This document shows, in pieces, positions 21,367 through 24,300 of a stretch of 38,343 nucleotides of DNA; positions within the stretch are counted from its first letter, which is position 1, and each line of letters starts with the position of its first letter. The notes beneath the pieces were generated by a model. It searched no databases and had not been told where the DNA came from. It was given only the letters and a program-made list of their open reading frames with translations. The position numbers were made by a program, and so were the translations under genes. Origin of the DNA: Candidatus Nomurabacteria bacterium (GTDB lineage Bacteria > Patescibacteriota > Minisyncoccia > Phycocordibacterales > CAIJYI01); the NCBI GenBank assembly GCA_943356445.1, contig CALREZ010000009.1, positions 1 through 38,343 on the forward strand, given 5' to 3'.

Positions 21367-24300
21367 TTAGGACTTTTTTAAGGCGATCATAGCGGCAAAG
21401 TCTTCGCTTCCGGCTTTTTCGCCCTTCGAAAGGTCGGCGAATTCCAAGTCGGCAAACAACGTCGCTTTTTTAATTTCTTTTTTGAATTTATTGAGGAATT
21501 TTTGTCCGGTTTCATCGGTTGAAACGAGCAGCGTCTGTTCGCGGTCATTCGGGTTGAGCTCTTCTTTTTTGCGGAGTTCTTGAACGTTGCGGATAAATTC
21601 GCGGAGCGTTCCCTCTTCTTTCAGTTCGGGAGTTATCTCCGTGTCCAATAAAACTTCCTCTGAAATTTTATCAAATGCAACGTCTTTCACGTTGACGCGG
21701 TCGGCGATAAGCGCAAGAAATTCTTTCCCGATAGGAACGGCAAACAAAGATTTCAATTCCGCCTTGAGCGTTATCTTTTTGAGCGGCTGGCGAACCTTGA
21801 GCGCGCCTTTCGCGCGAGCCTCCAGTCCGAGAGAAACGATTTTTCTGGTTTCGTTCATGAGCGCGAGTATCGGATCATCTTTCAACGTTTCTATGGTTGA
21901 CCATAATTCCAAATGCACGCTTTCTTTCGCTTTACTGTCTTTTACTTTCTGATAGACTTCTTCCGCCACAAAAGGAACGAACGGAGCGATAATCTTTGAG
22001 AATTCAAATAGTACATAGCGAAGCATTTCTCTCGCAGTAACACTATCGGCATCGCTTCCCTCTTTTCCTTTCAGACGCTCACGGGAATTTTGCAAATACC
22101 AAGTGGAAAGGTCATCAACGAAGAGCGAGATCGGGCGTACCGCGCGATCCAACTCGTATTTTTCCATCGCGTTTTCCACTTCCACGCGGACTTCTCCCAG
22201 TCGGGCAAATATCCATTCATCAAGAATGTGCGCGCTCTTCGGAAAGGCCAATTCTTCTTTTTTGTCTCCTGCGTATAATTCGTAAAAAGCAACGACATTT
22301 TGCAGGCGAACAATAATCTTTTTGTAGATTTCGTCCACACCTTTCTCGGAGAAATTCAGATCCTCTCCATGAACAACCGGGGTGGAAAGCAAATAATATC
22401 GCAGTGAGTCGGCGCCGTATTTTTGCACCATTTCCATCGGATCGGCGTAATTTTTCAGCCTTTTTGATATTTTTTGCCCATCTTCCGCCATAATCAATCC
22501 GGTAGTGATTACATTTTCAAAAGGCGCGCGCCCGAACAAACCGATAGAAAGAACGAGCATGTTGTAAAACCAGCCGCGTGTCTGATCCACCGCCTCGGCG
22601 ATAAAGTCCGCGGGAAAATTGCGTTCAAATTCTTTTTCATTCTCAAAAGGATAATGGAATTGCGCGTACGGCATGGAACCGGATTCAAACCAGCAGTCAA
22701 AGACCTCGGGAACACGTTTCATTTGACCACCGCAATCGCAGGAAAGAATTATTTCATCTATGTACGGGCGATGCAGGTTGATCTCGTAATCGCTTCCGTG
22801 CGGATAGGAAGAAAAAGCGACTTCCGTAACTCCGGCATTTCTCGCATACCCTTCGGTATTCATTCGGACTTCATAGGTTTCCTTATCAGAAAGGCCTTTC
22901 GTCGTCGTATCAAGCATCCACAAAACGTATTCGTGAGTAACGATCAGGATATTCTTCCCTTCCATTTTTTTGTCGGTCTCAAACAAAAAATCCATTGCGC
23001 GTTTTCGCACATCGTGAATGTTCTCTCCGCCTGGCGGCCTTTTCGTAAACCGTTCCATGAAATCGGCGAATTGGCGATGATATGCTTCAACGCTTTTTCC
23101 GTCGTATTCTCCGGTATTTATTTCACGGAGACGCGGGTCAAAAATGATTTTATCGGGAGATATTTTGAATTTTTCCGCCATAATCTCAACCGTTTCTTTC
23201 GTTCGCACAAAATCGGAAGCAAAAACCATATCAAACTTTTCCCCTTTCAAACTTTCCGCCGTTTCTTCCACTTGTTTTCTGCCTTTTTCCGTGAGATGCG
23301 TCGGATTTTCCACGCGCGAACTGACGGTATTGGTCGCGTTGCTCTCGGCTTCTCCATGACGCATGACCGAATATCGATTGCGTAATTTCGTGTCCTGATG
23401 AAGCGACAAAAGAGAACCGGCGACTTTTACTTTATTGCATTTTTGGCATTTCCATACGGGAATCGGCGCGCCCCAATATCGCGAACGAGAAATGGCCCAA
23501 TCGCGCGCCCCCTCCAGCCATTTTCCAAAACGGCCGTCCCTCATGGTTTCCGGAACCCAGCGAATTTCGCTGTTCGCCCGTATCATTTCGTCTTTTATCG
23601 CGGTTACCTTCACGAACCATGAAGAAGCCGCGTAATTCAAAAGCGGAGTATCGCAGCGCCAGCAGAGCGGATAGGAGTGTTCTATTTTTTCTTTGGAAAA
23701 ATACGTTTCATGATCTTGCAGGTATTTGATGATGGCGATATCGGTTCCGAGACGGGTTTTTTCGTCGTCGCTTTTCGGCTTCACCGACATGCCTTCAAAA
23801 TCAAAAACTTCATGCTTGAATACGCCGTCCATTCCGACATGCTGTACAAAAGGCAAAATTTCTTTTTTTCCGAGCTCCATGTCATCTTCTCCGAATGCCG
23901 GAGCGATATGCACGACGCCGGTACCGGTTTCCGTCGTAACGAAATCGGCGTTGTAAATTTTCCAGCCGTTCTTTCGCTGCGGAAGTTTTTTGTCGCTCGC
24001 GTAATAATCAAAAAGCGGTTTGTAGGATTTACCGATAAGCGTTTCGCCGGCGAATTCCTCAATTATTTCGTATTCCTCGCCTTTCAAAACATCACCAATC
24101 CGTTCTTTTGCAATAATATATGTTTCTCCTTCTTTCATTTTTTCGGCATCCGTCGCAGTGCTTTTTCCTTTTTCCTTTTTACTTTTTACTTTAAGGTAAT
24201 CAATTCCCTTTCCTACCGCCAACGCGACATTTCCCGGCAACGTCCACGGAGTTGTCGTCCATGCGAGCACAAAAGTTCCAGGCTCGTCAACGAGTTCAAA

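What the first reader, a model, noticed from the sequence alone, without database searches (positions are those of the whole stretch)
22777..23412. Histidine-phosphatase domain embedded inside isoleucyl-tRNA synthetase
Between ISRSRYWGAPIPVWKCQKC and LHRPYIDEIILSCDCGG the IleRS frame contains about 200 aa not expected in type-2 IleRS. This segment carries the hallmark motifs of the histidine phosphatase/phosphoglycerate mutase superfamily: RHGE (catalytic His), SDFVRTKETV (Arg), LREINTGEYDG (Glu) and VTHEYVLWML (second His). All catalytic residues appear intact, and the IleRS editing (TTTPWTLPGN) and KMSKS-like (KISKR) motifs are kept, so this looks like a functional two-enzyme fusion. The frame is uninterrupted. 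Possible roles (inference): hydrolysis of a phosphorylated metabolite or of an aberrant product near the active site, or regulation.
Basis: partly seen in the sequence, partly recalled or inferred. Interest (0 to 1): 0.88.

Follow-up and report, generated by a model that had tools for sequence, protein, structure and literature searches.

The report
Phosphatase built into isoleucyl-tRNA synthetase
In many ultra-small bacteria the enzyme that loads isoleucine onto its tRNA carries a complete, conserved phosphatase in its middle, and in some relatives that phosphatase is instead a separate gene directly in front, so the two appear to work together on a still unknown phosphorylated target.

Summary
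The 1185-aa type-2 IleRS (21367-24924, minus) contains a complete branch-1 histidine phosphatase (HP; Pfam PF00300, aa 520-695, E 9e-36), inserted in the loop between the two cysteine pairs of the second zinc knuckle. AlphaFold2 models it confidently, and all catalytic residues are invariant in 114 of 114 homologues. It is not an assembly chimera: an independent MAG has it at 95% identity, under strong purifying selection (dN/dS 0.041). It is widespread in Parcubacteria: ileS is interrupted at this point in 98 of 140 genomes of the window's class.

Beyond the finding: some IleRS carry two or three catalytically intact HP domains. ValRS carries HP at the same place. Rarer IleRS/ValRS carry NUDIX, HAD or serine-hydrolase domains. 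In six insert-less genomes a close HP relative is a separate gene touching or overlapping the ileS start; chance gives about 1e-11. This links the phosphatase to isoleucine charging even when not physically attached.

Best reading: an active small-molecule phosphatase kept with IleRS, probably clearing a phosphorylated by-product or inhibitor of adenylate chemistry. The substrate is unknown. No paper describing it was found in the searched library, though JGI annotation already gives some members a double name.

The parts
21367..24924 (-). ileS, type-2 isoleucyl-tRNA synthetase with embedded phosphatase (1185 aa)
   Evidence: best solved relatives by sequence and fold are IleRS2 of Priestia megaterium, eukaryotic IleRS and Thermus IleRS
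22816..23379 (-). histidine phosphatase domain, aa 516-703 (Pfam PF00300 at aa 520-695 = 22840-23367)
   Evidence: AlphaFold2 of the domain alone pLDDT 92.5, pTM 0.89; Foldseek to PhoE 1h2e E 1.4e-13
23353..23361 (-). RHG motif, R522-H523-G524, H523 = predicted phospho-accepting His
   Evidence: 114/114 invariant
23338..23340 (-). N529, catalytic-pocket Asn (equivalent to N15 of Aquifex HFP)
   Evidence: 114/114; role from PMC12051542
23203..23205 (-). R574, phosphate-pocket Arg
   Evidence: 114/114
23122..23124 (-). E601, predicted proton donor
   Evidence: 114/114
22933..22935 (-). H664, second phosphate-pocket His
   Evidence: 114/114
23437..23448 (-). first Cys pair of the second zinc knuckle (C493, C496), upstream edge of the insertion loop
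   Evidence: Cys kept in 104 and 103 of 114; aligned to the Cys pair of Thermus IleRS 1ile
22732..22740 (-). second Cys pair of the second zinc knuckle (C729, C731), downstream edge
   Evidence: 104/114 each
24229..24258 (-). editing-domain motif TTTPWTLPGN (aa 223-232), intact
   Evidence: near invariant in 114
24754..24765 (-). HIGH-type signature HPGH (aa 54-57)
   Evidence: read from the translation
22459..22473 (-). KMSKS-type signature KISKR (aa 818-822)
25000..26664 (-). argS, the gene just upstream on the same strand (75 bases between the two)
   Evidence: TIGR00456 341.9 bits, cut-off 261.65

Best explanation
The insert is an active branch-1 histidine phosphatase that forms a separate domain on the second zinc knuckle of IleRS (the CP2 region) and leaves the synthetase and its editing site intact. 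SHOWN by sequence and models: a complete HP fold, an invariant catalytic set, strong purifying selection, and a link to ileS that persists when the two are separate genes. INFERRED mechanism: H523 takes the phosphate from a small phosphomonoester, R522, R574 and H664 hold it, E601 donates the proton, and water releases phosphate. INFERRED role: a tethered helper that clears a phosphorylated by-product or inhibitor arising from or interfering with the adenylate chemistry of IleRS (and ValRS), for example a nucleotide or dinucleotide-polyphosphate derivative or a phosphorylated decoy. My estimates: catalytically active 0.9; functionally linked to isoleucine charging 0.85; clean-up of a small phosphorylated compound rather than regulation or tRNA repair about 0.45.
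For: Pfam E 8.7e-36. AlphaFold2 domain pLDDT 92.5, pTM 0.89, nearest solved folds PhoE, phosphoserine phosphatase, CobC. R, H, N, R, E, H invariant in 114/114, intact in both copies of 16 multi-copy IleRS (one copy has D for E) and in 55-56 of 56 ValRS inserts. dN/dS of the insert is 0.041, at or below the IleRS body at 0.048-0.085. Six insert-less genomes have a separate HP gene touching or overlapping the ileS start (-7 to +14 bases), chance about 1e-11. These six group inside the inserted-HP clade (SH-aLRT 96), although their IleRS bodies lie in several places in the IleRS tree, so the phosphatase was kept while its partner changed. The same insertion occurs in ValRS. Rare NUDIX, HAD and serine-hydrolase inserts in these synthetases fit a clean-up theme. 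Synthetases are known to make Ap4A and related nucleotides (PMC7705103).
Against: No substrate is known and none can be read from sequence: the domain falls below the cut-offs of all named HP subfamilies listed. About 30% of class genomes have no insert, and many of those have no adjacent HP or no HP above 1e-18, so the function is dispensable. HPs hydrolyse phosphomonoesters, so Ap4A itself would not be a direct substrate without a partner enzyme.
Confidence: 0.5

Rival explanations
1. Hitch-hiking phosphatase: the zinc-knuckle loop is a permissive landing site, and the HP is active but its substrate has nothing to do with aminoacylation; being fused to or next to an essential gene only secures its expression.
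For: Other hydrolases also occur in these synthetases: HAD and serine hydrolase in ValRS, NUDIX in IleRS. CPR genomes also fuse HP to VTT, MFS, NUDIX and dehydrogenase proteins.
Against: The association re-forms specifically with ileS and valS in several arrangements: inserted, doubled, tripled, adjacent. Bare co-expression would not favour the same two paralogous enzymes.
Confidence: 0.25
2. Regulatory switch: the HP removes phosphate from a protein, for example a serine of the synthetase itself, or reports a metabolite level to translation.
For: Protein phosphatases exist in the HP superfamily (SixA, PGAM5, TULA; papers). Phosphorylation of signature-loop serines of class I synthetases by HipA-type kinases is known to me from memory, not tested here.
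Against: The nearest solved folds are mainly small-molecule phosphatases and mutases. No kinase was identified among the window genes next to ileS that were scanned.
Confidence: 0.15
3. tRNA end repair: the HP removes a terminal phosphate from damaged tRNA bound to IleRS or ValRS so that it can be charged.
For: It would explain why the domain sits on tRNA-handling enzymes (inference only).
Against: No HP with RNA 3'-phosphatase activity is named among the structural neighbours. There is no reason for Ile and Val tRNAs only, and an adjacent free gene would lack tRNA binding.
Confidence: 0.08
4. Assembly chimera or degenerate relic.
For: The window is from a draft genome of 34 contigs.
Against: Same join in hundreds of proteins and in an independent MAG at 95% identity with conserved neighbours; dN/dS 0.041; uninterrupted frame.
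Confidence: 0.01

Closest known systems
Type-2 IleRS (Priestia megaterium IleRS2 8c8u/8c9d, Thermus 1ile, yeast 8wnd)
   Same: Catalytic halves, CP1 editing domain, anticodon-binding domain; both Cys pairs of the second zinc knuckle as in Thermus 1ile; 29-33% identity over the whole model
   Different: These solved structures have only a short loop where the window's enzyme has about 200 aa of phosphatase
Branch-1 histidine phosphatases: Bacillus PhoE (1h2e), Hydrogenobacter phosphoserine phosphatase (4ij6), E. coli CobC (6e4b), Aquifex riboflavin HFP (9mmh)
   Same: Fold (TM 0.68-0.80) and catalytic R, H, N, R, E, H
   Different: Those are free-standing enzymes; this one is nested inside a synthetase and is only 20-28% identical
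Mycobacterial MutT1 (NUDIX plus HP fusion; PMC11784022)
   Same: An HP domain of unknown target fused to a nucleotide-handling enzyme; [quoted passage not shown]
   Different: End-to-end fusion with no synthetase
IleRS with GNAT domain (NCBIfam NF040702)
   Same: Another named IleRS with an extra enzymatic domain
   Different: Acetyltransferase, not phosphatase; the window's protein scores 322 bits against a cut-off of 1999
JGI-annotated 'isoleucyl-tRNA synthetase/bisphosphoglycerate-dependent phosphoglycerate mutase' (P0168, P0171)
   Same: Same kind of fusion, already named by an automatic pipeline
   Different: Two-HP form; no functional study was found

Membership tests
Histidine phosphatase superfamily, branch 1 | PF00300 above curated cut-off | tested here: met
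   123.8 bits against 21.7
Histidine phosphatase superfamily, branch 1 | Catalytic R-H, second Arg, acid residue, second His | tested here: met
   R522, H523, R574, E601, H664 in 114/114; equivalents in Aquifex HFP
Histidine phosphatase superfamily, branch 1 | Alpha/beta HP fold | tested here: met
   AlphaFold2 pTM 0.89 and Foldseek to PhoE E 1.4e-13
Histidine phosphatase superfamily, branch 1 | Phosphatase or mutase activity | not testable with these tools
   needs protein
Type-2 IleRS | NCBIfam ileS over cut-off | tested here: met
   862.6 against 621.4 bits
Type-2 IleRS | HIGH and KMSKS signatures and editing-site motifs | tested here: met
   HPGH, KISKR, TTTPWTLPGN, GTGVVHIAP..GEDD
Type-2 IleRS | Closest to IleRS2 rather than IleRS1 structures | tested here: met
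   IleRS2 and eukaryotic IleRS chains score about 670-730 bits, IleRS1 chains about 290 or less
Alpha-ribazole phosphatase CobC | TIGR03162 over cut-off | tested here: not met
   82.4 against 162.9 bits
Phosphoglycerate mutase dPGM_arch | NF038349 over cut-off | tested here: not met
   78.3 against 225 bits

The most novel reading that the evidence does not exclude
Class Ia synthetases of the candidate phyla radiation are scaffolds for a sanitation toolkit: the CP1 and CP2 regions of IleRS and ValRS repeatedly receive, double, lose and release active phosphohydrolases (HP, NUDIX, HAD) and a serine hydrolase that destroy toxic or signalling products of adenylate chemistry, a third quality-control activity beside synthesis and editing.
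Probability: 0.25. Interest if true: 0.9.

Novelty: new variant of a known kind. Interest (0 to 1): 0.74.

Why it matters
IleRS is universal and intensively studied, yet a large share of Parcubacteria carry a second, catalytically intact enzyme in its middle that the searched literature does not describe. The alternation between inserted domain and overlapping neighbour gene is strong evidence that a phosphatase works with isoleucine charging, and the same in ValRS makes it a wider trait of branched-chain synthetases in these bacteria. It gives a testable way to an unknown activity in tRNA charging and to the puzzle of why streamlined genomes keep such added domains.

Tried and rejected
Assembly chimera: rejected. 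Decayed relic: rejected. CobC or phosphoglycerate mutase orthologue: below curated cut-offs. Tandem duplication as origin of the second HP in two-HP IleRS: not supported, since the second copies group apart from the first copies, though support for deep forks is modest. Several independent recruitments from free HPs as the only history: an AU test does not reject all synthetase-borne HPs as one clade against 31 free CPR HPs (p 0.75); tests for Ile alone and Val alone did not finish. 'Every genome needs this HP': rejected, because many insert-less class genomes have no HP at E 1e-18. Literature: six queries on the fusion itself found no description. Distances between the HP active site and the synthetic or editing site could not be measured because model coordinates are not exposed.

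Full report
WHAT IS THERE. The frame 21367-24924 on the minus strand is open for 1185 aa. It is an IleRS by NCBIfam (862.6 bits, cut-off 621.4), and its nearest solved relatives are type-2 and eukaryotic IleRS. Pfam places His_Phos_1 at aa 520-695 with E 8.7e-36, between the two halves of tRNA-synt_1. The whole model has mean pLDDT 88 and pTM 0.80. The insert folded alone has pLDDT 92.5 and pTM 0.89, and its best solved matches are PhoE, phosphoserine phosphatase and CobC. Aligned to Thermus IleRS, the insert replaces a short loop between the two cysteine pairs of the second zinc knuckle. All four cysteines are kept in the window and in about 104 of 114 homologues. CP2 as the name of this module is from PMC10485003; placing the insert in CP2 is my inference from the alignment.

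IT IS REAL AND SELECTED. A search with the insert region among proteins of similar total length found 654 relatives at E <= 0.001; all named ones in the list shown are Patescibacteria or unclassified bacteria. Eighty loci from GTDB species genomes came mostly from Parcubacteria lineages, including an independent Lac Pavin MAG with a 95% identical insert. Against that MAG the neighbouring genes also align, and Nei-Gojobori dN/dS is 0.041 for the insert against 0.077, 0.048 and 0.085 for three parts of the synthetase. R522, H523, N529, S570, R574, E601 and H664 are identical in 114 of 114 homologues, although the insert as a whole varies more than the synthetase. In a published HP, the equivalents H9, R8, R58, H149, N15 and E82 are the active-site residues (PMC12051542).

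HOW COMMON. In an even sample of 147 genomes of the phylum, 135 gave an IleRS match, and ileS is interrupted near profile position 496-513, with a frame over 1120 aa, in 21: 9 of 9 in the window's class and 12 of 126 elsewhere (my count). In 147 genomes of the class, 42 IleRS run through the site, 98 are interrupted there and one is uninformative (my count). For at least 79 of the 98, the list of HP matches shows the HP at the interruption (that list was cut).

WIDER PATTERN. In one family group IleRS has two HP domains (1441-1551 aa). One IleRS of 1572 aa has three, the third behind the KMSKS loop (L038), and L053 has its second HP there too. All copies keep the catalytic set, apart from one D for E, and the second copies do not group with the first. 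ValRS has HP at the same place (L037, L051, L213, L214, L219). L036 is a ValRS with a HAD domain, a serine hydrolase and an HP. One IleRS type carries a NUDIX domain near the editing region (L220 and P0181-P0184). Free CPR HPs are also fused to VTT, MFS, NUDIX and dehydrogenase proteins.

THE KEY LINK. Comparing the ileS and HP maps of the same class genomes showed insert-less ileS genes with a separate HP gene of 183-209 aa directly upstream on the same strand. Six were fetched (L193-L198). The HP stop and the ileS start lie -7, -4, +14, +4, -4 and -4 bases apart, as is usual for translationally coupled genes. Two more lie about 0.9 and 1.8 kb upstream (L199, L200). With at most 40 free HP genes in these genomes (my upper estimate) and 1 in 800 as the chance of lying there, six or more has a probability of about 1e-11. 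In the HP tree these six sit with an inserted HP (L052) at SH-aLRT 96, inside a larger clade of inserted HPs at 96; holding the six together as one clade is not rejected (p 0.61). Their synthetases, however, fall in several parts of the IleRS tree. The simplest reading is that a gene for an insert-less IleRS arrived and the phosphatase was kept beside it, or that the domain was excised; either way selection appears to have held the pair together. The IleRS tree needs 16 changes of insert state, so gains, losses and transfers are frequent.

HOW IT MAY WORK. The separate-gene form shows that the phosphatase need not be inside the synthetase, which argues against a purely structural or allosteric insert and for an enzyme whose substrate is linked to charging. 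That both IleRS and ValRS are hosts points to something the two share: adenylate chemistry, branched-chain substrates and the CP1 editing type. Synthetases make Ap4A and related compounds (PMC7705103), and mycobacterial MutT1 pairs NUDIX with HP and acts on diadenosine polyphosphates (PMC11784022), so a nucleotide-cleaning role is a reasonable lead but no more. Substrate, activity and benefit are not shown.

NOVELTY. Both parts are known families and an automatic pipeline already names some members as double enzymes (P0168, P0171). No paper on the fusion was found in the searched library, which lacks most subscription journals. I rate it a new variant of a known kind, with high interest because of the separate-gene evidence.

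Noticed in passing
L036:1827-5657 (G235): A ValRS with three added hydrolase domains: HAD (aa 229-342), serine hydrolase (631-772) and HP (819-1002); L039 appears similar, with an alpha/beta-hydrolase-like stretch plus HP.
   Followed up: partly
L220:193-3780 (G407), P0181-P0184: IleRS with a NUDIX domain inserted at aa 225-343, near the editing domain; four such IleRS proteins in the large search.
   Followed up: partly
L038:3167-7882 (G249): IleRS of 1572 aa with three catalytically intact HP domains, one of them behind the KMSKS loop.
   Followed up: partly
L054-L057: HP fused behind a VTT membrane domain (437-462 aa) in one CPR family; also MFS-HP (L058), 2-hydroxyacid dehydrogenase-HP (L059) and NUDIX-HP (L060).
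   Followed up: no
L091: An HP-bearing IleRS contig titled Spirochaetia bacterium PowLak16_MAG37; probably mis-binned CPR DNA.
   Followed up: no
window 19562-20536 (-): DNA damage-inducible protein D (DinD-like, Bro-N domain), 306 bits, between recO and ileS.
   Followed up: no
window 27675-29729 (-): 684-aa protein with a weak TldD metalloprotease match only in its C-terminal half; the N-terminal part is unexplained.
   Followed up: no
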